In this document: piece by piece, positions 27,731 through 44,604 of the stretch
Layout: the number at the start of each line of letters is the position of its first letter
Numbering within the stretch: the first letter of the stretch is position 1
NCBI GenBank assembly: GCA_907163375.1
Contig: CAJQUW010006864.1
Coordinates: 310,001-374,000 of the forward strand
DNA: 64,000 nucleotides
Source: Prostheceraeus crozeri
Taxonomy: Eukaryota > Platyhelminthes > Polycladida > Euryleptidae
Direction: 5' to 3'
Notes under the pieces: generated by a model
Seen by the model: only the letters and a program-made list of their open reading frames with translations
Told to the model about the DNA's origin: nothing
The model's database searches: none
Program-made: the position numbers and the translations under genes

Positions 27731-28718
27731 AGTAGTAACCCCATGGCAAATTCACGCGCAAAATATGAAATGCTGACTCAGCCCCCCCTCTGGAAGGAAG
27801 GGAGTTGGCCAAGCATGTGTTGGGAGGAATGGGTCCGAGAGGAAGAAACGGGTCCCCCCCTCTGGATGGAAGGATGGAAGGAGGAGTTTTCTTGTGAGGC
27901 AAGGGGTGGAATCTTTGAAACCGTCAGAGTTGGAAAAGGCAGGTGTTGGAGGTTTTGGGATGAGAAAAGTCGTTTTTCGGGCAGAAGGAGACCTCGGATG
28001 GGAAAATGGAGTGCAAATTCGGACGTTTTGGTCAAAGTTGGGTCTAGGAACTTCTTCCCAACTCAATCGGAGAGAAAAAGTTCTGACCCCCTCCCCCCTC
28101 CTGCCAAACTTCCAACTTTGGTTCTAGAGATGGTACAAAGTCGTGCAATAGCTCATTTGAAAGCTAAGAGTGAGAAAAAAGCAGTGGAAAGCTCAGTTTG
28201 GACTAATTTTCTTGGGTTTAGGGAGGAAAATGGCAGGAAACCGTCAGAGTTGGAAAAGGCAGGTGTTGGAGGTTTTGGGATGAGAAAAGTCGTTTTTCGG
28301 GCAGAGGGAGACCTCGGATGGGAAAATGGAGTGCAAATTCGGACGTTTTGGTCAAAGTTGGGTCTAGGAACTTCTTCCCAACTCAATCGGGGAGAAGAAG
28401 TTCTGACCCCCCCCCTCGGCAGCGATCTTCTAACTTTGGTTGTAGACATCGTAGAAAGTCGTGCAATGGCTCGTTTGAAAGCTGGGAGTGAGACAAATTC
28501 AGTGGAAAACATGGCTTGTTCGTATCTGCCTTCGTTTAGAGATGAGGCGTTATTGAAATTTTGGACCTTGGCGAAAAACGACAGAGTTAGAATGTTTATG
28601 AAAATCGCTCTAGCGAGTGAAGCAAGCCTCGTACGGGAAAACAGAGACCTGATTTGGAATCAGCGTCAAATTTGTGACAAATTTTGACCCCCCTCTTATC
28701 GATTGCATATTCACAGGG

Positions 28719-28773
28719 TATATAAGAATGGGATCGGGAGAGGAATTTCACTAAGTTGAGAAACTGACTACAG
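28719..28773 (+). promoter_or_regulatory. Left TIR promoter and splice donor
   Basis: TATATAAG (28719-28726) is followed about 25 bases later by a TTTCACTAAG start-like sequence and then CAG|GTAAGT with the donor at 28773/28774. This gives a short noncoding first exon. The matching acceptor TTTCATTTCAG lies at 29595-29605, two bases before the ATG at 29608, implying an 832-base intron. Being in the TIR, the same promoter exists on the right end. Confidence 0.7.
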
Positions 28774-29568
28774 GTAAGTCGTTTCTCTTGAGTTCCGATA
28801 TCGGACTTCTGACTTTCCATTGCTGATATCAGCTAAGGTGTCAGACTTATAGGTTAGTCAGTATAGCATGACTGACCATTTGATGATAGTAGGCCGAAAT
28901 CTTCAAACGGCTATAACTTTGCTTCTACAAGTCCTTTAGACTTGATTCAAAAAACATTCGACAGCTCTTGCTGTGCTGCAGGTGACAGACTACTTATAAA
29001 AGTTTTATGAGTAGTGCTAAAATACTGAAAAATTAAAATTCATATTTAATGATAATAATTAAAGTTTTTGAATAAAAAGCAGTCGTTTATGAGTCTCTGT
29101 GACCTGGGTCGTTTCCTCTTGTAAATAACTCCACCGGTTTTCATGTCAAAACTGGGGCCCGGATACCAACACAGTGACATGACGCACGCTCTGTCCGCTC
29201 GAGGTTGGATTTGTGGGTCGAGGCCTTGGAGCTGGGATAAGATCCCCTCTGAGTAATGCCTGTAACGGATTCAAGAGCTTAACACCCATGCGGTTGCTGG
29301 CTTGCTATCAGGCCTTCTTCGTCTAGCCTCAGTAGCTCAGGCTTGGCAACGTCTATCGTTTGTCATTGTAACTTGCTAAAAATGGGACGGTTACTGCAAG
29401 CATTGACGTCAAACCTTTTCGCGTCATAGGGGAATCCGTCTTTGTGTTGGGAGTTGGTAACAGAAAGCACGGTGACTGCCGATGTCCATACATGGTAAAA
29501 CTGCTGTTGTCAAGTTAAAAGCATGGCCAAATAAGGAAAGTCTGAATCATGGCTTTGTGCTCGCTGGG

Positions 29569-29576
29569 TATATAAA
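29569..29576 (+). promoter_or_regulatory. Inner TATA box of the left TIR
   Basis: TATATAAA, 32 bases before the ATG at 29608. It is duplicated at the inner end of the right TIR (42998-43005). It could give an unspliced transcript of the 91-residue gene. Confidence 0.5.
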
Positions 29577-29607
29577 CCGCTGACTCTCATTTAATTTCAT
29601 TTCAGTC

Positions 29608-29883
29608 ATGCAGACGCCGAACACTCTGGTCAGCTCTCCTGACAAGTCTCGGTTGAAGCCGAGAAATCTATTTGAAGAGTTTTCGCAGATGGAAGAGCGA
29701 GAAAGGATTTATAACAATCTTGCTCGAATTGGTTCATCGGCTGTTGATGATAAGACCGATTCAACAGAGTGGGGCTATATACCGCCCTCTGACAGTCGGG
29801 TGGTAGTAGAGGAGGTTGATGCCGCTGACATAGAGAGACTAAGAGTCTCTCTCAGCAGGATCGGCCAGTCCCACCCAAGTTAG
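29608..29883 (+). CDS. Small charged protein at the left end, probably expressed from a spliced TIR transcript
   Basis: 91 residues, not recognised. It contains two copies of a charged helical motif: residues 30-44 (ERERIYNNLARIGSS) and 75-88 (IERLRVSLSRIGQS), separated by an acidic, Ser/Pro-rich linker. No transmembrane segment. The splice acceptor directly before the ATG and the TIR promoters upstream suggest early expression. The internal duplication suggests a binding protein with two equal sites; this is inference. A short hairpin (GACGATAGTC) follows the stop. Confidence 0.65.
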   Translation: MQTPNTLVSSPDKSRLKPRNLFEEFSQMEERERIYNNLARIGSSAVDDKTDSTEWGYIPPSDSRVVVEEVDAADIERLRVSLSRIGQSHPS

Positions 29884-29944
29884 ACGATAGTCTTTTTAAA
29901 AACATAAGATCAACTTTCATACATGCAACACATTCTTTCATCAC

Positions 29945-30245
29945 CCTTCGTCGGGAACGACCCATGGGCTCTTTTAGAGGCCAACCTTCTAATGCAGCTA
30001 AAGCGGTCCCAAGCCGCCACATATCCTCGGATATGGAATGCAGAGGGGAAGAAAAATGATGAATGGAATGAAATGGGAGGACATTCATGCGCCACACGCA
30101 ACACATCACAGACTTCTCTCTTTGCTAGTGAACAAGCTCTTGTCAGTGTCGTACAAAGGTTTTACTGCAACACAGGTTGATGTATAGTTAGAAAGTTTAT
30201 TCATGACGTTTATTCATAAGTCTAGTCAGAAAGTGTATCATGGTT
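29945..30245. repeat. Internal inverted repeat, left arm
   Basis: Reverse complement of about 41318-41615, with small indels. Shared blocks include GAACGACCCATGGGCTCTTT, ATGCGCCACACGCAACACAT and AACAAGCTCTTGTCAGTGTC. Both arms are open in more than one frame with indels between them, so coding is undecided. It lies inside the TIRs and is separate from them. Confidence 0.8.
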
Positions 30246-30470
30246 TGTAAACGTAAAGTTTGATCATGACGTTTATTCGTAAGTCTAGTCAGAAAATGTA
30301 TCATGGTTTGCAAAGTTAGTGTAGTCAAATAATATTACCGCGACACCCGTTTGATAAAATAAAGTTTGATCATGTTGTTTATTCGTGAGTGTCGTCAGAA
30401 AGTGTATCATGACGTTTATTCATAAGTCTAGTCAGAAAGTGTAAGCGTTGGTGCAGTCAAATAATTTTTA
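30185..30470. repeat. Imperfect tandem repeats upstream of the RING gene
   Basis: Units of 55-65 bp repeat the pattern ATCATGACGTTTATTC(A/G)T, AAGTCTAGTCAGAAAGTGTA and TCATGGTTTG at least four times. Each contains TGACGT, the core of CRE-type sites. A shortened version continues in the right arm of the internal inverted repeat. Possible enhancer or replication iterons. Confidence 0.65.
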
Positions 30471-30607
30471 TCACAACACATGTCTGTGAAAGTTAAGTAT
30501 TAGATTACACAGAGTCATCAATACTGTCAAAGGTGTACAAGTCATATCAAGCATATTTAACTGAGTGTCCATTCCTGACACTTATGATCATTTGAAATTA
30601 TTTGAAG

Positions 30608-31114
30608 ATGAAAAGTTGCATTCGTTTCCCAACTTCATTGTCTGTAGCAAGAGAGCTTGGCTATTCGTTGAAGGCTATAGAAAGTGCTACAAATGTAAAT
30701 GAAAATATTAAAGCTGACGCTTTAGTTGAAAGACTAATGGATCTAGATGAGCATGCTATGAATCATCATTTGGATCGAAGATGGATAGAGGATTTTTCCA
30801 TGCTGCAATGTAATGATAGTGAAAATGGGATGAAATTGGCGCGATCTGGAGTGAAAAAGAAAAAAGTGACATTTGCAACTGATTTGTCAAGTAACTCTAC
30901 CAATAAAAGTGACTTTAGAAAGAAATTGGAAGAAGAGACGTTTAAATTATTCTGTGAACGGAACTGTGTTGAGCGTTTTAAAAGGGAGCGGTCCCTTCTC
31001 TTTTTACCATGTTGTCATTCTGTTATGTGTTCTACGTGCTATGTACCTTTGGAAACTATGTTGTGTCCCATCTGTGATCAAGAAATAATTTCAACAGTCA
31101 ATGTATATAAATGA
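30608..31114 (+). CDS. UBA-RING protein, IAP-like E3 ligase candidate
   Basis: 168 residues from the ATG at 30608. Residues about 10-55 look like a UBA-type three-helix domain (SVARELGYSLKAIESATN then a Leu/Asp helix). Residues about 115-165 form a C-terminal RING with FLPCCHSVMCSTCY and MLCPICDQEI. The arrangement resembles the UBA and RING end of cellular inhibitor-of-apoptosis proteins without BIR domains. The first Cys pair is spaced unusually (CERNC). Likely role: ubiquitin ligase acting on host cell-death or defence proteins (inference). A homologue with a stop codon is at 1112-1624. It is the first gene of the long + cluster. Confidence 0.75.
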   Translation: MKSCIRFPTSLSVARELGYSLKAIESATNVNENIKADALVERLMDLDEHAMNHHLDRRWIEDFSMLQCNDSENGMKLARSGVKKKKVTFATDLSSNSTNKSDFRKKLEEETFKLFCERNCVERFKRERSLLFLPCCHSVMCSTCYVPLETMLCPICDQEIISTVNVYK

Positions 31115-31152
31115 TGTTGATGCAATCCTAGTCGAATTTAAAACAGTCATCT

Positions 31153-31467
31153 ATGACCATGAAACCACTGTATCATCGTCTCATTGAAAAGAGAAAGCAT
31201 GATTATACAAGGCATTGGATTCTCGTGTTGGAAAAACTATTATCATCCAGTGATTGTAGAGAGATGATACATCGTTTGAGTAATGCTATCATCATTCACG
31301 CAAACTGTGAAGATGTTGACTATATGCTATCTTATAATTTTAAACCAAATCAGTTTACGAATACACTTTCATCACTGTTACATCATGGTAATCTTTCATT
31401 ACCTTGCTTGGAGTTATGTATTATACACGTTGCTTATGGGAAGCCTTTTCCACTTAAGCACAATTGA
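31153..31467 (+). CDS. Hypothetical helical protein
   Basis: 104 residues, not recognised; mainly helical, rich in His, Leu and Cys, without a signal peptide. It begins 39 bases after the RING stop and its end overlaps the start of the glycoprotein frame by about 80 bases. Tight packing suggests it is real, but support is limited to length and position. Confidence 0.45.
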   Translation: MTMKPLYHRLIEKRKHDYTRHWILVLEKLLSSSDCREMIHRLSNAIIIHANCEDVDYMLSYNFKPNQFTNTLSSLLHHGNLSLPCLELCIIHVAYGKPFPLKHN

Positions 31468-31747
31468 TGCAAAGGCATTAAACTTTACAAACATCGTCAT
31501 ACAAACAGACTGTTCATGTCTGGCTCATAACATATCAGCAAACGACACAGCTGAACTGTTTCCATTGAACTATAGTACCTCACTGAATGATACATTACAG
31601 CTACCCACACATGTATCTGCTTCTGACTATCCTACTGGTACTGTGGCTGTTCTCAGTGTATTGCTTTTTACTAGTGCTGTACTCAATGTCTTCCTCTATT
31701 TCATTGCGTTTACGACGGTGATGTTTCGACGCTGCTGTCGTGTTTAA
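31385..31747 (+). CDS. Small type I membrane glycoprotein
   Basis: About 120 residues from the ATG at 31385 (the frame stays open upstream to 31283). A hydrophobic N-terminus (WSYVLYTLLMGSLFHLS) looks like a signal peptide. The ectodomain of about 60 residues has at least five N-X-S/T sites (NFT, NIS, NDT, NYS, NDT). A hydrophobic segment (VAVLSVLLFTSAVLNVFLYF) and a short tail with RRCC follow. It is therefore probably exposed on membranes. Whether it works in entry, egress or signalling cannot be told from sequence. It ends in TAA within a TAAGCAAA motif. Confidence 0.6.
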   Translation: MVIFHYLAWSYVLYTLLMGSLFHLSTIDAKALNFTNIVIQTDCSCLAHNISANDTAELFPLNYSTSLNDTLQLPTHVSASDYPTGTVAVLSVLLFTSAVLNVFLYFIAFTTVMFRRCCRV

Positions 31748-31752
31748 GCAAA
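31745..31752 (+). promoter_or_regulatory. TAAGCAAA motif before the basic-protein gene
   Basis: Overlaps the stop codon of the glycoprotein gene and lies 26 bases before the ATG at 31779. The homologous gene at the left window edge has the same octamer upstream. Confidence 0.5.
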
Positions 31753-31778
31753 GATCACTCTAACATCCACCTGTAAAA

Positions 31779-32180
31779 ATGGCTAGACGTCGTTCATCTC
31801 ACCGTTCACGCAGACAAAAGTGTCAATCAAATGCAAACAAAAAATTCTGTCTCACGCTTCGTCGCTTATTAAAATTAAAGCCATCTCATCGATGTGAGGC
31901 AATAAAGCTGGCAAACAATGCCTTCATTCGTAAAATGTGTGCGGAAATACGAAAAGTGCGTTATATGACATTAAATAGCAGAAAGGCCAATGCAATTGCC
32001 AGACATGGTAAAGTTCTTCTTACCTTGAGCAATCCAAAAACATCAATTCCTACAAAGCGCAAACTATTATCACAACGTGGTGACTTCTTACCACTTTTAG
32101 CGCCTATCATCATGGCAGCTGCCGGTCCTGCTTTGGGAGGTTTAGCTGGTGCTCTCGCAAATAAAGCCATTAATGGATAG
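31779..32180 (+). CDS. Basic virion-like protein with hydrophobic Gly/Ala-rich C-terminus
   Basis: 133 residues. Residues 1-25 are Arg/Ser-rich. A helical middle part (LRRLLKLKPSHRCEAIKLA...) is shared with the partial gene at 1-249. A conserved-looking block with KTSIPTKRKLLSQRGDF leads into a Gly/Ala-rich hydrophobic C-terminus (LAPIIMAAAGPALGGLAGAL). From memory, proteins of this shape commonly sit near capsid genes in invertebrate Polinton-like elements. It could be a minor capsid or membrane-active virion protein; this is inferred from composition and neighbours. Confidence 0.65.
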   Translation: MARRRSSHRSRRQKCQSNANKKFCLTLRRLLKLKPSHRCEAIKLANNAFIRKMCAEIRKVRYMTLNSRKANAIARHGKVLLTLSNPKTSIPTKRKLLSQRGDFLPLLAPIIMAAAGPALGGLAGALANKAING

Positions 32181-32219
32181 ATACTAAGTTAAATGGTATG
32201 ACTTTTCATCAAAATCAAC

Positions 32220-32840
32220 ATGGATTTCCGTTTACGTTGTAATCGCACTATGTGTATCGTAGGACCCTCTCATAGTGGGAAGACACATTTAACACTGCAA
32301 TTGTTGGAGCGTCTTAATGAGATTTTTGACTGCATAACGAATCGTGTTGTTTGGCGCTATGGAATTTATCAACATAACTTACATCGTGAATTGGTTGGTA
32401 AGGGTTACTTGGTTCAACCGGGGATTATCAGCACTGCTGATATTCAACCCTATGATATTATCATTCTTGATGATTTGCTTAATGAGAGAAAGAACTCACA
32501 AGAAGTAACTGCTATGTTTACCAAGGCTGCTCATCATAAACCATGCTTTATCATTTTTATTATGCAAAATCTTTTTCCAAGTGGAAAGGAAGCACGGACT
32601 CGAAGTCTAAACACACATTACTACATCATCTTTAAAAATCCTCGCGATAAAAGTCAAGTTGAATTCCTATCTCGACAAGTTCTTCCTCGCAAGTCAAAAG
32701 CATTGATTGAAGTATTTGAGGCTGCTACGGAAAAACCCTATAATTATTTATTTTTGGACTTTACCCAGGAGTGTCCTGAAGATTATCGCTTACGCAGTCA
32801 TCTCTTTGAGAAACCCATGATCATATATAAATTGCTATGA
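32220..32840 (+). CDS. DNA-packaging ATPase (HerA/FtsK-A32-like)
   Basis: 206 residues, intact. Walker A is GPSHSGKT at residues 15-22. Walker B is YDIIILDDLL at about 78-87. A conserved-looking IIFIMQNLFPSGKEARTRSL region follows, containing a possible sensor Asn/Gln. Size and motif layout fit the short genome-packaging ATPases of Polintons and related viruses, which drive DNA into capsids. Its stop overlaps the start of the next gene as ATGA, pointing to coupled expression from one transcript. It starts at the ATG just after an AT-rich leader. Confidence 0.85.
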   Translation: MDFRLRCNRTMCIVGPSHSGKTHLTLQLLERLNEIFDCITNRVVWRYGIYQHNLHRELVGKGYLVQPGIISTADIQPYDIIILDDLLNERKNSQEVTAMFTKAAHHKPCFIIFIMQNLFPSGKEARTRSLNTHYYIIFKNPRDKSQVEFLSRQVLPRKSKALIEVFEAATEKPYNYLFLDFTQECPEDYRLRSHLFEKPMIIYKLL

Positions 32841-33019
32841 GTGGTTTTCAACGCATGATTGCTATTCCACAAGAAGAATATATACATCTGACTACAATGC
32901 AGAGTGTTCATCAACCTTGGGCAAATCAAATGTCACAACTTAATCAGCAATATGAACAAGAAGCTGTACAAAGTAAAAATCCATATGATCGTTTGATAAA
33001 GCAGAGTTCTACCTTATAA
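32837..33019 (+). CDS. Small conserved-position protein
   Basis: 60 residues, rich in Gln, Tyr and Met; not assigned a function. It begins in a 4-base overlap with the ATPase gene and ends 3 bases before the next ATG. Short Gln-rich ORFs of this kind occur beside the packaging ATPase in similar elements, as I recall, so it is probably real. No membrane segment or zinc motif. Confidence 0.6.
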   Translation: MSGFQRMIAIPQEEYIHLTTMQSVHQPWANQMSQLNQQYEQEAVQSKNPYDRLIKQSSTL

Positions 33020-33022
33020 GAA

Positions 33023-33481
33023 ATGAAACAATTGAAAGAAAAAATATGCAATGATCTTTCGCTTGGTTCACCCAAACCCTATCGCAATCGCGCACTGAGC
33101 TTATATCGAAGTCTCGAACCCAACTTGAAAATCACACAACAAGGTGAAGTGGTGGGTGATGATGGTGCAGTCATTAGGGACTCAAGAGTGGAAGATTTAA
33201 TTAATCATGCTGTTCGTGATCGTCGTCGTCACTTTACACTTACAGGATGGGAGTTCTTTTTAAAAAGTATGAAGAAATTCAATGTCCCAAAAGCAATTCT
33301 TGGTCGTGATACTTTACAGGAAATGGAAAATGATTCTACACCTAGGAAGAGAAAGTTGCAAAGTGTAGAGAGACCTAAAAAGAGAATCAAGCAAACTTTG
33401 AAAGCACCCGAGAAGTTGCCGAAGCGTATACCAAAACCTTCAACGCGTTATCCATCATTTGATTTTATCACAGACTTTTAA
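33023..33481 (+). CDS. Virion-associated candidate with basic tail
   Basis: 152 residues. The N-terminal half is helical, with a block GEVVGDDGAVIRDSRVEDLI, then a TGWEFFLKSMKKFNVP helix region. The C-terminal 45 residues are strongly basic with Lys/Arg-Pro repeats (PRKRKL, RPKKRIKQ, PKRIPKP). The tail would suit DNA binding or nuclear import. The function is not established. It is tightly packed between the 60-residue gene (3-base gap) and the next ORF (TAATG overlap). Confidence 0.65.
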   Translation: MKQLKEKICNDLSLGSPKPYRNRALSLYRSLEPNLKITQQGEVVGDDGAVIRDSRVEDLINHAVRDRRRHFTLTGWEFFLKSMKKFNVPKAILGRDTLQEMENDSTPRKRKLQSVERPKKRIKQTLKAPEKLPKRIPKPSTRYPSFDFITDF

Positions 33482-33675
33482 TGAAGAAGCTATGTTGCAT
33501 CCCATGTTCAGAGTTGCCAAACATTCATGTGTCATTGAACTGCTTAAGTACATGTTGTAAAAGTGATTCATACAAGACGGCTCAAAAAAGTAGTAAAAGC
33601 AGGACTCAAACACAAACGCAAACCCTAGCAGAGAAAAAGACTGATACTTTGAGGCAAATAAACAATCCCTCTTAA
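33481..33675 (+). CDS. Small Cys-rich hypothetical protein
   Basis: 64 residues; starts in a TAATG overlap with the previous gene and ends 6 bases before the integrase. The N-terminal half contains CCIPC, NC and TCC, a possible metal-binding cluster. The second half is Ser/Lys/Thr/Gln-rich. No homologue recognised. Confidence 0.45.
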   Translation: MKKLCCIPCSELPNIHVSLNCLSTCCKSDSYKTAQKSSKSRTQTQTQTLAEKKTDTLRQINNPS

Positions 33676-33681
33676 TAGACG

Positions 33682-34749: not shown

Positions 34750-34754
34750 GCAAA
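34747..34754 (+). promoter_or_regulatory. TAAGCAAA motif between integrase and pX-like gene
   Basis: Overlaps the integrase stop codon; 36 bases before the ATG at 34791. Part of the series described under findings. Confidence 0.45.
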
Positions 34755-34790
34755 GTAATGAATTGTGTAAATATAAATAAATAAATACCT

Positions 34791-35180
34791 ATGGATCAAA
34801 CTGCTACGTTTTATTCTGCCCCCTCCTATGCTAGTCATGGAGCTGGCTTTCCCGTTTATGCTGGATCGAGACGTCAAAAAGGGGGTAGTCTATTGGGTGC
34901 TGTCAAAGGTATGATGCTCCCCACTATCGCAAATGTGGGAAAATCAGCTTTAAAGGAAGCTGTAGGATTAGCAGCAGATGTAGCAAGTGATGCGCTTTCA
35001 GGAAGATTGCCGATTCGTGAATCGCTAAAGCGTCATGGAATACAGCGTTTGAAGAATGTCGGTAAGGCTGGTATCAGGTCTGTCATTAGTCATATCAATC
35101 CACTCTCTACTTCAGGCAAACGTAAGCGAAGAGCATCTCGTATACCTCCTAGCAAACGCAGACGACGTGGACTGTTTTAA
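34791..35180 (+). CDS. pX/pVI-like small virion protein candidate
   Basis: 129 residues. The N-terminal part is Tyr/Ser/Gly-rich and contains RRQKGGSLLG, whose GG-S would suit an adenain-type cleavage site. A helical Ala/Val/Lys-rich middle follows. The C-terminus is very basic with KRKRR and SKRRRRGLF. This layout resembles adenovirus core or cement precursor proteins that are cut by the viral protease and bind DNA. Assignment is by analogy; its neighbours are integrase, capsid-like protein and protease. Confidence 0.6.
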   Translation: MDQTATFYSAPSYASHGAGFPVYAGSRRQKGGSLLGAVKGMMLPTIANVGKSALKEAVGLAADVASDALSGRLPIRESLKRHGIQRLKNVGKAGIRSVISHINPLSTSGKRKRRASRIPPSKRRRRGLF

Positions 35181-35182
35181 TT

Positions 35183-36462
35183 ATGGAATGTAAAACCACA
35201 TCCCTTTGCTAAATTGATAGAACACCTATACAGACGGATATCATTAGAAATTATGTATCCATTCGTTATCCACAGACACGTATTGATTCTGGTAGTGTCA
35301 TTGAATTTTTAATACCAGGAAATGATGCTGAGTACATCGATGTAAATGACATCAATCTACATGTTAAGTTTAAGATAGTAAATAAGGACGGTACCAACCT
35401 TGATGATGAGGACAAAGTAGCCGTGAATAACTTGGCAATAGCAACGCTCTTCAAGGATGTATCATTGACCATTGGTGAAACTCGGGTTGAAGGTGGTCAA
35501 CACAGTTATCCCTATCTCGGTTATTTTTCAACAGTCATGCAGTTCCAGCCACAAGCACAAAAGAGTCACATGGCTGTTATGGGTTGGTGTAAAGATGAAG
35601 CTGGTAAATTTGATAGTGACAAAAACAAGGGATTTGTCACTCGTGAAAAGTGGACTGCAGAAAGTAGGGTGTGTGAATTATATGGTCCCCTATACTTGGA
35701 CTTTTTCCGTCAATCACGTTTCTTAATGTCAAAAGTAGACATGCGAGTTCATCTCTTACCGAACGATCCTAAATTTGTATTGAATTCTTATGGAGCAAAG
35801 ACTGAGTTTAAGATTGTGTTTGAAAGTGTTAGACTTTATGTGCGACGAATGACAGTGAATCCTTCGGTGATTAATGGTCACGAGATGGGTTTGAAGAAGT
35901 ATGATGCTCTTTATGATGTAAATCATACTGAGATCCATAGTTTCACCATTCCTCGTGCGCAAAAGAGCTTTGTTAAAGATAGTTTGTTTCCTATACAATC
36001 ACCAAAAATGATCATTGTGGGATTGATTGAAATTATGCATACAATGGTAATATATCGAAGAATCCCCTCAACTTTGAACACTTTGGTTTAAATCAAATCG
36101 GATTGTATCGCGATACGGATTGCATTCCTGGTACTCCTTTTTGCCCAGACTTTGCCAATGGACATTATTCTCGCTCATATCAAAATACTATGGAGACCTT
36201 TAAATACTGGAATACTGATGACACCAATGGTTTGACCTGTGATGAATTTGCTAAAGGTTATACACTTTACGCATTTGATTTGACAGCAAACAATGAAGCA
36301 GGTGCTTCTTATCTTCCGGGCACTGCCACGAAGGGTCTTAAACTAGAATTCTTCTTTGAAAAAGATTTGACGAAAACAGTCAATGTACTCATCTATGCTG
36401 TGTTCGATTCCACCATTCGAATTAACAGACTACGTGACGTTTCCGCTTCTTATACAAGTTAA
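35183..36462 (+). pseudogene. Capsid-like protein of the F54H12.2 family, broken
   Basis: Reads for about 426 codons, with an in-frame TAA at codon 10 (35210-35212) and a frameshift at about 36031-36045. The order of strands and motifs (PQTRIDSGSVIEFLIPG, then SYPYLGYFSTVM, later DEFAKGYTLYAFDLT) resembles what databases label uncharacterized protein F54H12.2, adjacent to an integrase in Polinton-derived loci. It is likely a jelly-roll capsid component; whether major or minor is not settled by sequence alone. It lies immediately before the protease gene (TAATG overlap). Both lesions would stop a full-length product unless they are sequence errors. Confidence 0.75.
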
Positions 36463-36923
36463 TGAGTTGGTTATCTGATGCAGAGCTAGAGAGAGTCGTT
36501 CAAGAACATGGTGATGAACGCACTGTTGCAGCATTTCGAGGTGTGTTTTCCATTAATAATATGCCCACAGTTTTGCCAAAAACACCCTCATTCATTATCA
36601 TGAATACTGATACAGCAAACTTACCCGGCAAACACTGGAAAGTTTTGTTTATTGATAAAAACTATTGCGGTGAAATCTTTGATTCATTGGCCTTACCAAA
36701 TTGTGATTATGTCACACGTTTCATGAACCGTCATTCACGAAAATGGATTCGCAATGCTTTGGCCTATCAACATCCCTTGTCTTCAACATTTGGAGCCTAT
36801 GCCCTCTACTTTGTAATGCAACGACTACATTATGACTCTCTACATGACATTTGTAAACATTTTTCACATGATACCCTTGTCAATGAAAAGCGCATTCGTA
36901 ACTTTTATAAAAGCCTTCAATAA
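36462..36923 (+). CDS. Adenain-like cysteine protease with nucleophile position changed
   Basis: 153 residues, open throughout. Adenain features are H58 in GKHWKVLFID, D74 in FDSL and Q103 in AYQHPLSST. Position 110, where the family has the catalytic Cys followed by Gly, is Phe (codon TTT at 36789-36791) followed by GAYALYFV. The family matures virion proteins, and candidate substrates lie next door (34791, 31779). This copy should lack peptidase activity. An AATAAA overlaps the stop (36919-36924), a likely poly(A) signal. Confidence 0.85.
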   Translation: MSWLSDAELERVVQEHGDERTVAAFRGVFSINNMPTVLPKTPSFIIMNTDTANLPGKHWKVLFIDKNYCGEIFDSLALPNCDYVTRFMNRHSRKWIRNALAYQHPLSSTFGAYALYFVMQRLHYDSLHDICKHFSHDTLVNEKRIRNFYKSLQ

Positions 36924-37391: not shown

Positions 37392-37398
37392 CAAAACG

Positions 37399-37425
37399 TT
37401 TGCTTAGTCTTCTCGTTTAAGCAAA
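37399..37425. promoter_or_regulatory. Divergent pair of TAAGCAAA motifs
   Basis: TTTGCTTA (37399-37406, minus-strand TAAGCAAA) and TAAGCAAA (37418-37425) face apart, separated by 11 bases. They stand directly between the divergent genes at 37391 (-) and 37439 (+). This arrangement is what a bidirectional promoter built from the motif would look like. Confidence 0.6.
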
Positions 37426-37438
37426 ACATTCATAAGAA

Positions 37439-38005
37439 ATGGACGAAGTCATGTTGAGATTGATCATCCTATTATCATTTGCAATAGTGACATTAGCGGG
37501 ACGAGGATTAGATGATGCAGTTTGCCTCATCAAATCACCTATTCATGCAACAAGACCTATTGAAGATGTAATTCTTTCCGGCATAGTCGATCCTTGGCAA
37601 AATCATGCTTACAAACTACAGATTTTACGTCAGCGAATGGGTCATGCGTGGGAAATGGTGTTAACAGATTATGGCTTTAAGCGATCACCTGTAGGTGGCA
37701 TCGATTTGATCAATCCTGTACGTCGCATTGCAATGGAATTAAAAAATAGCTGTCGTGTGACCTCATCAATAAAACGTGAAATATTTCATACCCTTGAAGA
37801 TTTTAAACGTAGAAGACCAAGATATCAAGTCATATTTGGTTGTATCAACTATCGCAATATGAAAGAAGGCGGTACAAGCATACTTAGGGGAGTGCATTAT
37901 GTGAAAGGGCAATCACTCTTAACCAAATTCCTAGGACGACAGAAAGTACCTACTGTGAATAGATTGAAAGCAGCAGTTCGTTATGTCATGCGACATAACG
38001 CCTAA
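37439..38005 (+). CDS. PD-(D/E)XK nuclease, restriction-enzyme-like
   Basis: 188 residues, intact. D89 (GGIDLINP) and E100-x-K102 (IAMELKNS) form a PD-(D/E)XK active-site pattern with an extra Asn (N103), followed by a helix region (SSIKREIFHTLEDFKRRRP) and a strand YQVIFGCINY. This order recalls type II restriction-enzyme-like nucleases such as the Eco47II group. A hydrophobic segment at residues 5-20 could be a signal or core helix. Possible roles are host-DNA degradation, replication-intermediate processing or exclusion of competitors; none is proven. A TAAGCAAA motif precedes the gene and another overlaps its stop. Confidence 0.65.
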   Translation: MDEVMLRLIILLSFAIVTLAGRGLDDAVCLIKSPIHATRPIEDVILSGIVDPWQNHAYKLQILRQRMGHAWEMVLTDYGFKRSPVGGIDLINPVRRIAMELKNSCRVTSSIKREIFHTLEDFKRRRPRYQVIFGCINYRNMKEGGTSILRGVHYVKGQSLLTKFLGRQKVPTVNRLKAAVRYVMRHNA

Positions 38006-38010
38006 GCAAA
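38003..38010 (+). promoter_or_regulatory. TAAGCAAA motif before the second capsid-like gene
   Basis: Overlaps the nuclease stop codon; about 40 bases before the first open part of the next gene. Confidence 0.45.
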
Positions 38011-38050
38011 CGACGCTTTATGTTGATACTTTAACACCGAGTTTACAGCA

Positions 38051-39674
38051 GTGTTTCCCAGTAATGCTCAACCTGAGCGATATGAAAATACAGCTGCTGA
38101 GTTTGAGACTGATTTAACACAGCCGATTGACTTAAATGGTGATTGGGAAGTGGTCCTGCAAGATTTGAGCTATGTGAATAATATAAGAACCATTGCAAAT
38201 GAAGAGATTACATTAGGCACTGCAACGAATCAAGACTTGTACTTTCCAAAACTAGAGCGAAATGATGAAGTACATACCTACAACTTGAATGAACATGCAG
38301 CAGAGTGGAATTCTATTCCTACAGTAAACACCCGTCGGGGAAAGCGAGCTGTTGATGAGATTGTAAATGGCCCCACTTTAATTATCACTGCAGATACAGA
38401 CAAACCCATTGATAAAAATGCTTCACCCCTGAAATGGAAACAACCTACAAACCCATCATTCCGTCATCGTTTAGAGCAATCATACTATAATATGAAAATT
38501 CAACGCCTATTGAATGTTATGAATGATTTGGTAAAGGATCTATGGTTCTGGCAAATGGATCCAAATCTACATAAAGTTACCCTCTACATGAGACCGACTA
38601 CTATTTCCCATGGATTTTATGTGAGTGGACCTCTGCAAAAGATATTGAATCTTAAATCACGGTTCTTTCTACCTATCACAAAATTTGATTTGCAGAAGTA
38701 AAAGGAGGCGGTGCCTTCCCTTTGAGAGCTCAAGTGTCCATGAAAGTATCAAAGCAGATTAAGAAATATCCAAATTGGCACAGGAAAAAATTTAATATTA
38801 CCCTTCTTCCCATTGATCGCATGCATGAGCGCTTTGTGCTTTTTAAATCCGGTACTGTTGATGACTTGATCAAACAGGTAAATGAAATGAATGGATTATC
38901 TATGTCCATCACTCGAGTACACAATGAAGCAAGGATTGATTTCCGAAATGATTGTGAGCGTTCAGACATTCGATTTGTTCACATCAATTCTAAATTTCGT
39001 GATTTGCTCTCTTTAAAAAATGACGTCTTATGGTCATACCATGAATGGGGGACTGTGAAAATAACATCTGAACAGCAATCCGATTGTCGAATGGTCCTTT
39101 ATTTCAAACGTACAGACCCTGTTTTACGTCCCAGTCTTACATGGAAGCCAAATGAAAAGTTACCGATACCTCCAAAGCATTATAGCAATGGTTATGATGT
39201 TTGTACATACTTGAACAAGGGTGTATCAAATCTACACTCATATCATTTTGACTATGATCCTAAAGAAAATACATTCTGTATCAGTGTACATGGTAAAACG
39301 GTCATTCACATTTCAAAAGAGTTGACAAAGATTTTAGGATTCAAACGTGACATATTCTACGACGAGAAGTATTGTGGCTCAACATCCTTGCTCGATATGA
39401 ATATCAATCACTTTTACATTTACACTAACTTTATCCATTCAACACAAGTTGGCGGTCAAATGGTTCCCCTTTTAAGATATATTCCTATTGACAGTGGCGA
39501 CTTTGGTGGACCATGCACAGGGAGTTCTTGAACAAGGTATACATTCCAGTCAATGTATCACGATTATCCCATTGCAAATTTGGTATCTATGATGATAGTG
39601 GTAATCCTATTCAATTCATTGGTGGTCGTACTGTCTTAACACTTCATTTTCGTCAGATAACATCAAATCACTAA
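38051..39674 (+). pseudogene. Second capsid-like structural protein, frameshifted
   Basis: Coding-like sequence continues for about 540 codons through three frames: 38051-38701, about 38695-39531, and about 39510-39674, with frameshifts near 38695 and 39515. The N-terminus may begin upstream, in another frame overlapping the nuclease gene (ATG at 37983), implying a third shift near 38055. Visible features are a beta-rich N-terminal part (DLNGDWEVVLQDLSYV), a dibasic RRGKRAVDE site and a C-terminal beta-rich region with HFYIYTNFIHSTQVGGQ and a final GRTVLTLHFRQI strand. It resembles the larger structural protein found with F54H12.2-type genes. Whether it is hexon- or penton-like is unresolved. 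Confidence 0.65.
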
Positions 39675-39718
39675 TGTTGCGTGTGGCGCAGTCAATGTCT
39701 TTTCTTTCTTGATTAGGT

Positions 39719-39748
39719 GGCCGTTAAGGCCGTGGTCTCATAAAGACC
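39719..39748. terminator. Two adjacent hairpins between convergent genes
   Basis: GGCC-GTTAA-GGCC (39719-39731) and GGTCT-CATAA-AGACC (39734-39748). They lie between the end of the + cluster (39674) and the end of the minus gene (39783), so a 3'-end-forming role on either strand is plausible. They do not match the histone stem-loop consensus. Confidence 0.4.
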
Positions 39749-39782
39749 GTTTGGGGCATTCTCTGTCTCATCAAAGGGCTTT

Positions 39783-39968
39783 TCACTCCTGAAAGTCAGC
39801 CTCGTTTATGAAAGGCTCACTCTCTACCGTTTGTAGAGTGAGCTGCTTGCAGCCTTCAATCATTTGTCTCTCTTCCTCTTCCTCTTTTTGTTGAAACTTT
39901 CTCTCAACTTCCTTCTTCGTAGGAGTTGAGGTAGCAAGAGGTGTGAATGTTTCCTCTTTGTCGGACAT
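39783..39968 (-). CDS. Small acidic/charged protein
   Basis: 61 residues from the ATG at 39968, which is preferred over upstream Mets because a TATA box (TATATAAAG, about 40005-39997) lies about 30 bases before it. The sequence begins MSDKEETFTPLATSTPTKKE and has a Glu-rich helix (KFQQKEEEEERQMIEG). No known family. It forms a divergent pair with the gene at 40157. Confidence 0.55.
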   Translation of the reverse strand: MSDKEETFTPLATSTPTKKEVERKFQQKEEEEERQMIEGCKQLTLQTVESEPFINEADFQE

Positions 39969-39994
39969 GACTATGATAGTAAAATGCAAGACAC

Positions 39995-40086
39995 TCTTCT
40001 TTATATATGAGAATGATGCAGTGTGATTGATAAGTGGCTGTCGTCCAATGAGAGATCGCGAAGCAGGGAGAGAGAATCTATATAAG
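39995..40086. promoter_or_regulatory. Divergent TATA promoters
   Basis: The minus strand has CATATATAAAG at about 40007-39997, reading toward 39968. The plus strand has CTATATAAGTG at about 40078-40088, reading toward 40157. The two are about 75 bases apart and may share one control region. Confidence 0.55.
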
Positions 40087-40156
40087 TGCGGTGCAATGAC
40101 CATTTCCTCATAATATCATTAAAATTGATACACCACCGAACGCCTATGCCTTACTC

Positions 40157-40525
40157 ATGCCCAATGCCCCATGCAAGAGGCAAGTAAAAAATATTTACAA
40201 TGGTGAGGTCGAACCGCTAGAGTTGGAGGAGGACGAAACCATCATCATCTCCGACGATGAAACCATCATCTCCGATGATGAAACCATCACCATCTCCGAT
40301 GATGAGACGGAGAAGTCAGAGGTGCAGTATGGTGACTGTGATATTCTGCGAGGCGCATTCCTGAATGCGTCAGCGAAAGACATTGTAAATGAGAATGACA
40401 TCAACATTTTACGAGGTTGGCAAGAGCTCTTCTCCCCAAATAGTCAACCTCGCAATGAAGAGGAGTTTGATTATGTTAATGTTATGTTTCGCCTTGTGGT
40501 GAAACGTATTGCCGATTTGGAATAA
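40157..40525 (+). CDS. Acidic protein with three tandem SUMO-interaction-like motifs
   Basis: 122 residues. Residues 29-50 carry three consecutive units of two or three Ile/Thr residues followed by SDDE (IIISDDE, TIISDDE, ITISDDE), matching the hydrophobic-then-acidic pattern of SUMO-interacting motifs. The N-terminus has a short basic patch (CKRQVK); the C-terminal half is helical. It has its own TATA box. It could bind SUMOylated host nuclear proteins such as PML-body-type components; this is inference from the motif. A short upstream ATG (40145) opens a 13-codon frame. AATAAA at 40521-40526 overlaps the stop. Confidence 0.65.
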   Translation: MPNAPCKRQVKNIYNGEVEPLELEEDETIIISDDETIISDDETITISDDETEKSEVQYGDCDILRGAFLNASAKDIVNENDINILRGWQELFSPNSQPRNEEEFDYVNVMFRLVVKRIADLE

Positions 40526-40921: not shown

Positions 40922-41173
40922 TCACTCAAAGTTGAGAGGGATCACTTTTAAATTTGGATAGATTGTAAAATGTTTTGGACGCTTGGGAGCGTCGGGCACT
41001 TTCCTCACACGCATCGTTTTTGGCGTGAATTCACCATCAGTCCACACAACTTTTTCAATGACGGCTTTCTTGCGGGACCCATCCTCTTGCTCACACTTGT
41101 CTTCATCCCATTCATCAATGACTTCAAATACTTTGTTTAAGATCTCTAAGGTGGGAGATATACCTTTCATCAT
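40922..41173 (-). CDS. Small hypothetical protein with TATA promoter
   Basis: 83 residues from the ATG at 41173 (MMKGISP...), chosen because TATATAAG lies about 45 bases upstream (about 41219-41212). The reading frame remains open to 41245. It has an acidic centre (VIDEWDEDKCEQEDG), then a WTDGEFTPKTMRVRKVPDAP segment. Not recognised. An AATAAA follows within a few bases of the stop. Confidence 0.55.
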   Translation of the reverse strand: MMKGISPTLEILNKVFEVIDEWDEDKCEQEDGSRKKAVIEKVVWTDGEFTPKTMRVRKVPDAPKRPKHFTIYPNLKVIPLNFE

Positions 41174-41211
41174 GAGATAGATGAGAATGAGAAGTGCTGC
41201 AATCGTTTCAC

Positions 41212-41219
41212 TTATATAG
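41212..41219 (-). promoter_or_regulatory. TATA box of the 40922-41173 gene
   Basis: TATATAAG on the minus strand, about 40-45 bases before the chosen ATG. Confidence 0.5.
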
Positions 41220-41317
41220 TTATTTAACAATGAATTCCTCAACAACCAATCACAATGATTCTAATTCAGATGAGGATTCCTTTTTTCACTTTATCAACCT
41301 GTGTGGCAGTAAAAACT

Positions 41318-41615
41318 TAGTACAACATGATACACTTTCTGACTAGACTCGTGAATATACCTTCGATGATCAAAGTTTTCTAACTATACATCATCAACCT
41401 GTGTTACAGTAAAACTTTTGTACGACACTGACAAGAGCTTGTTCACTAGCGAAAAGAGAAGTCTGTGATGTGTTGCGTGTGGCGCATGAATGTCCTCCCG
41501 TTTCATCCCTTCATCATTTTTCTTCCCCTCTGCATTCCATATCCGAAGATATGTGGCGGGCTTGGGACCGCTTTAGCTGCATTAGAAGGTTGGCCTCTAA
41601 AAGAGCCCATGGGTC
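41318..41615. repeat. Internal inverted repeat, right arm
   Basis: Inverted copy of 29945-30245. It diverges by several small indels (for example near GGCGGGCTTGGG), which break any shared reading frame. A second fragment of its TGTTGCGTGTGGCGCA block occurs at 39674-39690. Confidence 0.8.
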
Positions 41616-41827
41616 GTTCTCCGTCCACCGACACTACTACTGCAAACACTCTGAAGGGAAAATAATAGGAGATTAGATGAGCTACAAAAAATAATTATGT
41701 TGAATTGACTTACTGGGAACCTTCTTTCTAACTTTTCTGACGACGAAGTCATCAAGCTCTCCATTGATATTCATCGTCATGTGGAGGCAGCGAACTCCAT
41801 CCCCCTCGTAACACAACTGCGTTTCGT

Positions 41828-42760
41828 TCAAATCGCTGGAGATTCTGGGACATCACATATGTTATTCTCAAAGAGGGGAAGATGAACCTCATATAATCTC
41901 CTTTTTCGACACTTCAAACGCTCATGCAATCGCTCAACTTCACCCGTCAACCTCTTATTTATGCCCTTCACCTCCTCCGTCTCCTTCACCACGCTTCGCA
42001 TTCGCTCTATCTCTTCATCCTTCCTCAACAAACCCACCTGTAAACTCTCCACCAAACCTGCCTTCCTCATCAACTCGCTCCTTTCCGCCATCCATTCCTT
42101 CTCCTTCTTTCTCAAGCTCTCCAACTCTTCCCTCGTTGCCCTATACCCCTCAACCTTCGCCACCAACTCTTCATTCTCCTTCAAAACTTTTCTATTTACA
42201 CTTTCCAAACCCATCACACGATCCTTCAACCTAACAAATGCCTCCGTATCACACCCTTCTTCCTGCCGTGGCGATGACGCTGCCATCGGGTTACCCACTT
42301 CCTCACCCTCCCCCTCCAGATCACCGATATCCCCAAACAAATCCTTAATCACCTTATCCAAATCAACATCATCCTTCTTCTTCATTTTCGCTCTCAACTC
42401 AACTTCCTCACTCGAACTCTCATCACTCGCCTTCGTCACCACTTTCTCCCCAACCACGTCCTCAATCGTTGCCACCGCCTTCCTCACATCTTCCCTTTCC
42501 AACAACTCTACCTCAAACCACATCTTGAACCCCTTCTCTCCGATGTTCCCACTCTCAAACTGCAAATGCGCCTTCATAAACTCTGCCTCATCCCCCATCG
42601 CACATACCCGACAAGGCACACACAGCCTCAACATCACCTTCCTCTCATGGCCCATCGTCCCCTCTTTAGCTTTTAGATGCTTCTTAAGATCGCTGCCTCG
42701 TGCGATACGGCCACAGCTGCATTTTCCAACCAGCATTCTAGCATTACACTGCTTAGTCAT
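41828..42760 (-). CDS. Zinc-binding coiled-coil protein, first gene at the right end
   Basis: 310 residues from the ATG at 42760. Residues 1-55 contain CSC, HLK, GHE and CVPCRVC, a probable metal-binding module. A middle acidic region follows. From about residue 175 to 295 there is a long heptad-rich coiled coil (LKDRVMGLESVNRKVLKENE and onward). No homologue recognised. An acceptor (TATCTTTACAG, exon from 42767) sits 7 bases before the ATG, and two upstream donors can feed it: one in the outer TIR exon (43801) and a GTGAGT at 42947. This points to early expression. Its GC content is higher than that of its neighbours. Confidence 0.7.
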   Translation of the reverse strand: MTKQCNARMLVGKCSCGRIARGSDLKKHLKAKEGTMGHERKVMLRLCVPCRVCAMGDEAEFMKAHLQFESGNIGEKGFKMWFEVELLEREDVRKAVATIEDVVGEKVVTKASDESSSEEVELRAKMKKKDDVDLDKVIKDLFGDIGDLEGEGEEVGNPMAASSPRQEEGCDTEAFVRLKDRVMGLESVNRKVLKENEELVAKVEGYRATREELESLRKKEKEWMAERSELMRKAGLVESLQVGLLRKDEEIERMRSVVKETEEVKGINKRLTGEVERLHERLKCRKRRLYEVHLPLFENNICDVPESPAI

Positions 42761-42767
42761 GATAATT

Positions 42768-42947
42768 CTGTAAAGATAGAGTAAAATTTGATAGCAAGTG
42801 TTTATAGGATACTACTTGCTGATATGCATTGAAAGACTAAGTCACCAAACATTTGATAGCAAACGTTGGAATAAAATTTAAAGAGTATGATTCCTAGCTT
42901 TATCCTAAATCCCAAAGTTTGATAGCAAACCTTGTCAGAGCACTCAC
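42768..42947 (-). other. Probable 180-base intron with three iterated motifs
   Basis: Donor GTGAGT at 42947 and acceptor CTTTACAG ending at 42768. Within it, TTTGATAGCAA recurs at about 42788, 42852 and 42918 (plus-strand reading), spaced about 65 bases apart and followed by variable (A/G)(C/T)NTT. Iterated sites suggest protein binding. Confidence 0.5.
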
Positions 42948-42997
42948 CGTTCGTCTTGCAACTTGAAACAGGAGTGAAGACTAGAGAACAGTCACGG

Positions 42998-43005
42998 TTT
43001 ATATA
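42998..43005 (-). promoter_or_regulatory. Inner TATA box of the right TIR
   Basis: TATATAAA on the minus strand. A transcript from here would include the GTGAGT donor at 42947 and splice to 42767. Confidence 0.5.
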
Positions 43006-43800
43006 CTCAGCGAGCACAAAGCCATGATTCAGACTTTCCTTATTTGGCCATGCTTTTAACTTGACAACAGCAGTTTTACCATGTATGGACATCGGCAGTC
43101 ACCGTGCTTTCTGTTACCAACTCCCAACACAAAGACGGATTCCCCTATGACGCGAAAAGGTTTGACGTCAATGCTTGCAGTAACCGTCCCATTTTTAGCA
43201 AGTTACAATGACAAACGATAGACGTTGCCAATCCTGAGCTACTGAGGCTAGACGAAGAAGGCCTGATAGCAAGCCAGCAACCGCATGGGTGTTAAGCTCT
43301 TGAATCCGTTACAGGCATTACTCAGAGGGGATCTTATCCCAGCTCCAAGGCCTCGACCCACAAATCCAACCTCGAGCGGACAGAGCGTGCGTCATGTCAC
43401 TGTGTTGGTATCCGGGCCCCAGTTTTGACATGAAAACCGGTGGAGTTATTTACAAGAGGAAACGACCCAGGTCACAGAGACTCATAAACGACTGCTTTTT
43501 ATTCAAAAACTTTAATTATTATCATTAAATATGAATTTTAATTTTTCAGTATTTTAGCACTACTCATAAAACTTTTATAAGTAGTCTGTCACCTGCAGCA
43601 CAGCAAGAGCTGTCGAATGTTTTTTGAATCAAGTCTAAAGGACTTGTAGAAGCAAAGTTATAGCCGTTTGAAGATTTCGGCCTACTATCATCAAATGGTC
43701 AGTCATGCTATACTGACTAACCTATAAGTCTGACACCTTAGCTGATATCAGCAATGGAAAGTCAGAAGTCCGATATCGGAACTCAAGAGAAACGACTTAC

Positions 43801-43855
43801 CTGTAGTCAGTTTCTCAACTTAGTGAAATTCCTCTCCCGATCCCATTCTTATATA
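43801..43855 (-). promoter_or_regulatory. Right TIR promoter and splice donor
   Basis: Minus-strand TATATAAG (43855-43848) and CAG|GTAAGT (donor at 43801/43800), the mirror copy of the left TIR promoter. Confidence 0.65.
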
Positions 43856-44604
43856 CCCTGTGAATATGCAATCGATAAGAGGGGGGTCAAAATTTGTCAC
43901 AAATTTGACGCTGATTCCAAATCAGGTCTCTGTTTTCCCGTACGAGGCTTGCTTCACTCGCTAGAGCGATTTTCATAAACATTCTAACTCTGTCGTTTTT
44001 CGCCAAGGTCCAAAATTTTCAATAACGCCTCACCTCTAAACGAAGGCAGATACGAACAAGCCATGTTTTCCACTGAATTTGTCTCACTCCCAGCTTTCAA
44101 ACGAGCCATTGCACGACTTTCTACGATGTCTGCAACCAAAGTTAGAAGATCGCTGCCGAGGGGGGGGGGTCAGAACTTCTTCTCCCCGATTGAGTTGGGA
44201 AGAAGTTCCTAGACCCAACTTTGACCAAAACGTCCGAATTTGCACTCCATTTTCCCATCCGAGGTCTCCTTCTGCCCGAAAAACGACTTTTCTCATCCCA
44301 AAACCTCCAACACCTGCCTTTTCCAACTCTGACGGTTTCCTGCCATTTTCCTCCCTAAACCCAAGAAAATTAGTCCAAACTGAGCTTTCCACTGCTTTTT
44401 TCTCACTCTTAGCTTTCAAATGAGCTATTGCACGACTTTGTACCATCTCTAGAACCAAAGTTGGAAGTTTGGCAGGGGGACCCGTTTCTTCCTCTCGGAC
44501 CCATTCCTCCCAACACATCCTTGGCCAACTCCCTTCCTTCCAGAGGGGGGAGGCTGAGTCAGCATTTCACATTTTGCGCGTGAATTTGCCATGGGGTTAC
44601 TACT

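What the first reader, a model, noticed from the sequence alone, without database searches (positions are those of the whole stretch)
27731..44604. A full-length Polinton-type element with no recognisable DNA polymerase or helicase
Ends (AG...CT), long TIRs and an exact TAGCTA duplication mark an uncut element. It has the Polinton morphogenesis set (ATPase, integrase, protease, capsid-like genes), yet no PolB, SF3 helicase or primase-like gene appears on either strand, and there is little unassigned room for one. Either this lineage uses host replication, or one of the unknown genes (310-residue coiled-coil protein, nuclease, 117-residue minus-strand gene) starts replication. It could be a distinct virus-like lineage.
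Basis: partly seen in the sequence, partly recalled or inferred. Interest (0 to 1): 0.9.

Follow-up and report, generated by a model that had tools for sequence, protein, structure and literature searches.

The report
Half of a two-part Polinton virus
The element looks like the capsid-and-integration half of a virus whose genome is split over two separately inserted DNA segments; a DNA polymerase sits on a partner type of element with the same ends elsewhere in the same genome.

Summary
In detail: 27731-44604 is a full-length Polinton-type insertion (AG...CT ends, 1.6-1.85 kb inverted repeats, TAGCTA duplication) with integrase, ATPase, protease and capsid genes and no recognisable PolB. The same 2.05 Gb genome holds a second class with the same ends, carrying a 1,364-aa PolB, three stand-alone relatives of its N-terminal (terminal-protein-like) domain and a TATA-binding-protein domain, but no detected integrase, ATPase, protease or capsid gene. 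Both are numerous and recent: 114 integrase and 67 PolB copies scored (93-100% and 95-100% identical; capped lists). 66 of 114 integrase copies pair with a listed ATPase copy; 0 of 67 PolB copies do, and the one PolB near a listed integrase lies in a neighbouring separate element. None of five capsid-class copies examined has PolB; none of five PolB-class copies has the capsid set. Some capsid-class ends match PolB-class ends (97-98% over 1.28 kb) better than other capsid-class ends (75-77%). dN/dS is below 1 in most genes of both. Best reading: a bipartite Polinton. Replication, packaging and integration in trans are inferred; a one-piece helper is not excluded.

The parts
27725..27730 (.). 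left target-site duplication TAGCTA
27731..29579 (+). left terminal inverted repeat with tandem units of about 319 nt
   Evidence: arms I1-I4, I8, I9
29584..29880 (+). small ORF just inside the left TIR (91 aa from ATG)
   Evidence: 90-96% identical in C2992, C9854 and C3196
29955..30182 (.). inner inverted repeat, partner of 41392-41619
   Evidence: I5, I10, I12
30602..31111 (+). RING-finger protein
   Evidence: PF13920 1.8e-7
31280..31744 (+). ORF with a hydrophobic stretch, perhaps a membrane protein (read from the translation)
   Evidence: kept in sister copies; no Pfam match
31779..32177 (+). protein X (mu)-like core protein
   Evidence: sister copy PF05829 3.1e-6
32220..32837 (+). packaging ATPase candidate (P-loop; A32/FtsK type)
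   Evidence: (Pox_A32 and AAA matches below cutoff), 484 relatives, 150 scored copies in own genome
33020..33478 (+). unknown ORF; one longer frame (216 aa) in C9854 and C8086
33682..34746 (+). RVE-family integrase with chromodomain
   Evidence: PF00665 1.6e-12, PF00385 4e-7; 114 scored copies
34791..35177 (+). small basic protein beside the MCP; pVI-like by position only
   Evidence: no Pfam match
35213..36459 (+). major capsid protein gene, in two frames here (35213-36088, 36031-36459)
   Evidence: 164 relatives, mostly 425-427 aa among those listed; PF21738 double jelly roll in 2 of 17 relatives, best 5e-4
36462..36920 (+). adenovirus-type cysteine protease
   Evidence: PF02902 0.02 here, 1.1e-4 and above cutoff in C9854
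37044..37394 (-). 117-aa gene, related (33.7%, E 1.6e-14 in a small set) to the N-terminus of the TBP-domain protein of the partner class
37439..38002 (+). unknown gene; the nuclease reading rests on a weak Eco47II-type match (E 0.21)
   Evidence: no useful PDB match
38027..39528 (+). penton/minor capsid candidate, two frames here, one 547-aa frame in C9854 and C8086
   Evidence: identity inferred from size and place only, no Pfam match
39786..40103 (-). small ORF; a relative occurs in third-class elements C4418 and C12950
40157..40522 (+). acidic ORF with short repeats
40925..41245 (-). unknown ORF
41392..41619 (.). inner inverted repeat, partner of 29955-30182
41831..42760 (-). coiled-coil gene; 82-89% identical gene in B copies C12907 and C13281; end of the gene shifted here
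42995..44604 (-). right terminal inverted repeat
44605..44610 (.). right target-site duplication TAGCTA

Best explanation
The window element is segment A (integration and particle) of a bipartite Polinton. Segment B (replication and transcription) is a separate element in the same genome with the same kind of ends. Inferred cycle: B's PolB, with terminal-protein-like domains acting at the common ends, copies both A and B by protein priming; A's capsid, ATPase and protease package both; A's integrase inserts both, leaving 6-bp duplications. Shown: complementary gene sets, shared ends, duplications of the same size, abundance, recency and signs of purifying selection in both. Inferred: action in trans and mutual need.
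For: (1) PolB class with the window's ends: C13281 (91.0% over 1,212 nt at one end, duplication CCGGTT on both sides) and C12907 (91% over 784 nt); its PolB has 4,792 relatives of which some are annotated PF03175. (2) 0 of 5 A copies examined (window, C2992, C9854, C8086, C3196) has PolB; 0 of 5 B copies (C12907, C13281, C5770, C8120, C3196) has a match to integrase, protease or MCP; ATPase queries gave only antisense matches with stops. (3) Genome lists: 66 of 114 integrase copies pair with one of 150 listed ATPase copies, 48 at exactly 1,462 nt; of 67 PolB copies 0 lie within 300 kb of a listed ATPase and 1 within 20 kb of a listed integrase, in a neighbouring separate element. (4) Ends cross classes: A C9854/C8086 vs B C5770/C8120 96.6-97.6% over about 1.28 kb of the end region, but the same A ends are 75-77% over about 495 nt to the A ends of the window, C2992 and C3196. 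(5) Duplications in 5 of 5 A and 3 of 5 B copies. (6) dN/dS: integrase 0.19, MCP part 0.13, PolB 0.14-0.23. (7) The 117-aa minus gene of A has a relative in B, fused to a TBP domain.
Against: The genome lists hold only the best-scored copies, so a rarer one-piece element could be missed; the search for other PolB families (PF03175) and the control search with a second B gene did not complete. Among B copies with the window's own end type, C13281 is complete but its PolB is in several frames, and C12907 has an open PolB but has lost its right end; the complete B copies with open PolB (C5770, C8120) have the other end type. B of C3196 has no matching duplication. Window A ends and C5770/C8120 B ends match poorly (76-84% over short stretches). 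dN/dS rests on few changes, was not tested for significance, and was 1.89 for the PX gene. Integration and packaging in trans are not demonstrated.
Confidence: 0.75

Rival explanations
1. Both classes are complementary deletion products or satellites of a one-piece Polinton with the same ends that supplies everything; A and B are two non-autonomous families, not a mutually sufficient pair.
For: Non-autonomous derivatives are common among DNA transposons (recalled); elements with such ends and almost no genes exist here (C4418, C12950, C13950).
Against: Neither class looks like a gapped subset of a common map: each has a whole module of its own, sizes are alike (A 15.1-18.4 kb in five, B 15.0-19.1 kb in four complete copies), and both show dN/dS below 1 in most genes. 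No such parent among the listed copies, but the lists are capped.
Confidence: 0.13
2. Asymmetric dependence: one class is autonomous with the help of another, unrelated Polinton or of the host, and the other class is its satellite.
For: A has capsid and integrase and could borrow another pPolB; other Polinton families may live in the genome (not tested, PF03175 search unanswered).
Against: Some A and B ends are 97-98% alike over 1.28 kb, and B shows purifying selection although it has no integrase or capsid gene; A has no ORF that matches the terminal-protein-like profile (0 of 102 ORFs of 50 aa or more).
Confidence: 0.09
3. One reading: A replicates by host machinery or through one of its own unknown genes.
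For: Several A genes have no assigned function.
Against: A dedicated polymerase with the same kind of ends is present in at least 67 recent copies; the coiled-coil gene is shared with B, so it does not replace PolB.
Confidence: 0.03

Closest known systems
Polintons/Mavericks and adintoviruses
   Same: Ends, 6-bp duplication, RVE integrase with chromodomain, ATPase, adenovirus-type protease, protein-X-like and DJR-type capsid genes; the partner has a PolB of the Polinton kind
   Different: PolB and integrase lie on different elements. PMC11071296 (passages) describes adintoviruses as encoding PolB, hexon and integrase; by my reading of the ORFs, IMG/VR contig L023 has integrase, ATPase and PolB together
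Bidnaviridae and Drosophila Vesanto virus
   Same: Genome in two (Vesanto: perhaps up to twelve) segments with inverted terminal repeats, similar among many Vesanto segments; Polinton-related PolB (PMC4061559, PMC8363768; passages)
   Different: ssDNA viruses with a parvovirus-type capsid protein and SF3 helicase and segments of about 3.3-6.5 kb; here 15-19 kb integrated elements with Polinton-type capsid genes and an integrase
Polinton-like viruses (PLVs), Tlr1
   Same: Polinton-type morphogenesis with another replication solution
   Different: PLVs mostly lack RVE integrase and carry another replication protein in the same genome; Tlr1 has RVE integrase and a helicase protein in one element (PMC11071308, passages)

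Membership tests
Polinton/Maverick | long TIRs and 6-bp target-site duplication | tested here: met
   also four other A and three of five B copies
Polinton/Maverick | RVE integrase | tested here: met
Polinton/Maverick | DJR major capsid protein | tested here: inconclusive
   PF21738 in 2 of 17 relatives (best 5e-4), none in the nearest one; no PDB match; structure prediction switched off
Polinton/Maverick | adenovirus-type protease | tested here: met
   PF02902 above cutoff in sister copy C9854, below it in the window copy
Polinton/Maverick | packaging ATPase | tested here: inconclusive
   P-loop; Pox_A32 and AAA matches below cutoff here; some of 484 relatives annotated PF04665 (A32) or PF13173
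Polinton/Maverick (one-piece) | protein-primed PolB in the same element | tested here: not met
   0 of 5 A copies
Adintovirus | PolB, hexon and integrase in one genome | tested here: not met
   same calls
Bidnavirid | parvovirus-type capsid and SF3 helicase | tested here: not met
   no such family above cutoff in the 10 A and 10 B ORFs scanned; weak PF00910 match of the ATPase, E 0.12
PLV | no RVE integrase, other replication protein in the same genome | tested here: not met
   integrase present
Multipartite virus (works like) | complementary gene sets on segments with common termini | tested here: met
Multipartite virus (works like) | segments packaged in separate particles and needed together | not testable with these tools
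   no virion or infection data

The most novel reading that the evidence does not exclude
This is a multipartite virus with a linear dsDNA-type genome: two (perhaps three) Polinton segments of 15-19 kb that integrate independently, exchange their end sequences and travel in separate capsids, with stand-alone terminal-protein paralogues evolved to prime several segments. I recall no linear dsDNA virus with a split genome.
Probability: 0.55. Interest if true: 0.95.

Novelty: new variant of a known kind. Interest (0 to 1): 0.87.

Why it matters
Split genomes are common in RNA and ssDNA viruses and, as far as I recall, unknown for linear dsDNA viruses with Polinton-type capsids. Here at least 198 A copies and 67 B copies, many nearly identical, sit in one genome, so how a multipartite genome arises, how its segments keep common ends and how near-empty passengers follow can be read from sequence. 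It also offers a parallel to the segmented bidnavirids, which PMC4061559 (passages) derives partly from Polintons.

Tried and rejected
Rejected: A as a deletion derivative of a PolB element (C9854 and C8086 carry the core 30447-40261 and 30394-40261 without a gap at 96.6-98.1% and have no PolB); a hidden PolB in the window (one place, 39-44 residues, antisense, best E 4.8e-4 over 120 queries, judged chance); ATPase in B (3-4 of 120 queries on three of ten B pieces, antisense with stops); a TP-like gene in A (0 of 102 ORFs). L022, a B piece outside the PolB gene, also gave 1 of 120 PolB queries at 4e-5, not looked into.

Led nowhere: IMG/VR scans with MCP and ATPase gave no confirmed relative and with PolB two; the scan of bacterial and archaeal genomes with MCP gave none; PDB sequence searches gave nothing useful. 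No tool gave the gene neighbourhood of the 484 ATPase, 164 MCP and 4,792 PolB relatives, so I cannot say whether other hosts have the split; in the PolB search only the 8,000 candidates sharing most words were scored. C7305, fetched, has TIR-like matches on both sides but neither A nor B gene matches, and I did not find its ends; I left it unclassed. Papers were seen as passages (PMC11071308, PMC11071296, PMC8363768, PMC4061559) or as listings; in those seven searches, at most 20 papers listed each, no title or abstract start describes a Polinton split over two elements.
Full report
The element. At 27731-44604 there is an insertion with AG...CT ends, inverted repeats of about 1.85 and 1.6 kb, and TAGCTA on both sides. 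The TIR contains tandem units of about 319 nt, and a second inverted repeat lies further in (29955-30182 / 41392-41619). Genes in order: RING finger, membrane-type ORF, protein-X-like, ATPase, unknown, RVE integrase with chromodomain, small basic ORF, MCP, protease, a 117-aa minus-strand ORF, an unknown (weak nuclease match), penton candidate, small ORFs, then a coiled-coil gene at the right end. The window copy is damaged: the MCP and the penton candidate are each in two frames, and one small ORF and the coiled-coil gene are interrupted, while sister copies show single frames.

No polymerase. Of 120 PolB relatives run against the element, 1 matched at 1e-3 and 5 at 1e-2, all at one antisense place of about 40 residues; none matched with the whole window as subject. 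Nine PolB-bearing pieces of the partner class gave 70-120 of 120 and IMG/VR contig L023 gave 120 of 120. A profile of the stand-alone TP-like proteins found none of 102 ORFs of the element at E 1.

Sister copies (class A). A search with the left TIR gave 84 matches. Seven candidate elements were fetched in pieces. C2992 is a sister of the window element: 97.6-97.9% over 30523-36731, the part up to 39886 missing, no PolB, duplication CTTTAA. C9854 and C8086, found through the integrase, carry the core up to 40261 without a gap at 96.6-98.1%, with duplications GGAGTT and TGTATG. C3196 holds a fifth copy, duplication GGTCTT. None of the five has PolB.

The partner class (B). C12907 and C13281 have the window's kind of ends (91-92%) but other contents: a PolB of about 1,360 aa with C2H2 fingers and an endonuclease-VII-type zinc motif, a TBP-domain protein (PF00352, 1e-13), a protein with a DnaQ-like opening motif (my reading, no Pfam match), a pair of paralogues of 212 and 265 aa, and three paralogues of 164-182 aa. 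The PolB C-terminal part has no Pfam match of its own but 4,792 relatives at E 1e-3, some annotated PF03175, one named DNA polymerase in Mytilus edulis at 40% (PF03175 in 4 of 13 aligned), and holds a GDTDS motif (my reading). One of the three small paralogues matches residues 193-327 of the PolB N-terminal part directly (E 3.7e-10 in a small set), a second does so weakly (1e-5), the third through the others. A profile built from nine stand-alone copies finds 4 of 122 PolB proteins (best 9e-9; the three alignments I saw lie at their N-termini), and not the other 118. By alignment to L023 and L024 that region lies just before the OTU-like domain, where PMC11071308 (passages) places the terminal-protein domain; that the small proteins are terminal proteins is inference.

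State of the B copies. C13281 is complete (CCGGTT on both sides) but its PolB is in several frames. C12907 has an open PolB (1,362 aa) but has lost its right end beside a Penelope-like reverse-transcriptase frame (my reading). C5770 and C8120 have the B gene set, open PolB frames of 1,364 aa and duplications AACGGT and GTGAAG, with the other end type. C3196 has a B element 204 nt from its A element, without a matching duplication. None of the five has a match to integrase, protease or MCP; ATPase queries gave antisense matches with stops on three of ten pieces. Integrase and protease were sought only with the window's own proteins.

Numbers. Integrase: 114 scored copies, 93-100%, 83 of 114 without an internal stop. 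ATPase: 150 scored, 94-100%. PolB: 67 scored, 95-100%, 60 of 67 without an internal stop; 46 of 67 rows list an open frame of 1,304-1,380 aa, 3 of those with a stop. The lists hold only the best candidates, so these are lower bounds. Integrase and ATPase pair in 66 cases at 1,439-1,471 nt, 48 of them at exactly 1,462; the overlap implies about 259 A copies of this similarity, an estimate biased low because both lists favour the same copies; 198 distinct A copies are listed. If PolB lay in the same elements, about 51 of 67 PolB copies would be expected beside a listed A copy, and about 13 even with 1,000 A copies. One was found, in C3196, and that is two elements. The matching control with a second B gene was asked for many times and never answered.

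Shared ends. The first eight bases AGTAGTAA are the same in the 13 ends compared; one further end, the right one of C4418, differs at one base. A C9854 and C8086 share 96.6-97.6% over about 1.28 kb with B C5770 and C8120, starting 0.2-0.7 kb from the A end; the same A ends are 75-77% over about 495 nt to the other three A ends. The window's A end is 94% to A C2992, 91% to A C3196, 91-92% to B C12907 and C13281, 94-95% to the third class, and poorly alike to B C5770 and C8120. So end types run across classes while interiors stay apart, which fits molecules copied by one machinery.

Selection. Window copy against C9854/C8086: integrase dN/dS 0.19, MCP part 0.13, protease 0.26-0.36, ATPase 0.34-0.52, 117-aa gene 0.26-0.52, RING 0.44-0.49, unknown 37439 gene 0.41-0.59, membrane-type ORF 0.57-0.87, PX 1.89 on seven changes. 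C12907 against C5770/C8120: PolB 0.14-0.23, B2882 0.15-0.16, B3853 0.16, B5280 0.45-0.48, two TP-like genes 0.43-0.71. Counts are small and no significance test was made.

A third class. C4418 (12.3 kb), C12950 (17.7 kb) and C13950 (17.8 kb) share these ends, with exact duplications in two and one mismatch in the third. Matches to A genes are a distant coiled-coil gene in C12950 and C13950 and a relative of the 39786 minus ORF in C4418 and C12950; none gave a PolB, ATPase or MCP match. I take them as passengers; a third segment is not excluded.

Mechanism. B would supply polymerase and priming proteins, A integrase and particle; the common ends make each a substrate for the other's products. 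Complete copies are alike in size (A 15.1, 16.9, 17.4, 17.8, 18.4 kb; B 15.0, 18.4, 18.6, 19.1 kb), which would fit one particle type for each. These steps are inferred. Confidence 0.75 in the two-segment reading.

Novelty. Polintons, adintoviruses and segmented bidnavirids are known; a Polinton divided over two integrated segments does not appear in what my seven literature searches listed, in a library that lacks most subscription papers. PMC11071296 (passages) mentions genomes with adenovirus-class virion genes and no recognisable PolB or integrase.

Noticed in passing
window 46848-47990 (-): Protein with DUF3504 (1e-20) and QRICH1 (2e-8) domains, open over 381 aa; Crypton-type recombinase-like by my reading.
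   Followed up: partly
window 2523-3549 (-), 9075-10481 (+), 20567-21451 (-): Remains of transposases: DDE_Tnp_1_7 (piggyBac type), Tc5/DDE_1 (pogo type) and Tc3-type (Pfam); a very similar Tc-type gene, by eye, lies inside third-class element C12950 (L011:8208-9141).
   Followed up: partly
L019:6027-6899 (C12907): A TATA-binding-protein domain (PF00352, 1e-13) in a Polinton-type element, fused to a domain related to the window's 117-aa minus gene.
   Followed up: partly
C3196:238388-256808 and 257013-275392: An A and a B element 204 nt apart; A has a duplication (GGTCTT), B has none.
   Followed up: partly
P0241: An MCP relative 99% identical over 93% of the query (426 aa) on an 8.1 kb contig in public assemblies; source not named.
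   Followed up: no
C10272:31832-34845, C3119:153451-157876: ATPase copies facing each other 1.8 and 3.2 kb apart, perhaps palindromic A derivatives.
   Followed up: no
C7305:30932-43355: TIR-like matches on both sides but neither A nor B gene matches.
   Followed up: no
window 44737-45638: Arrays of CCCGGGTTCTATT-type repeats and a 27-nt perfect inverted repeat just outside the right end.
   Followed up: no
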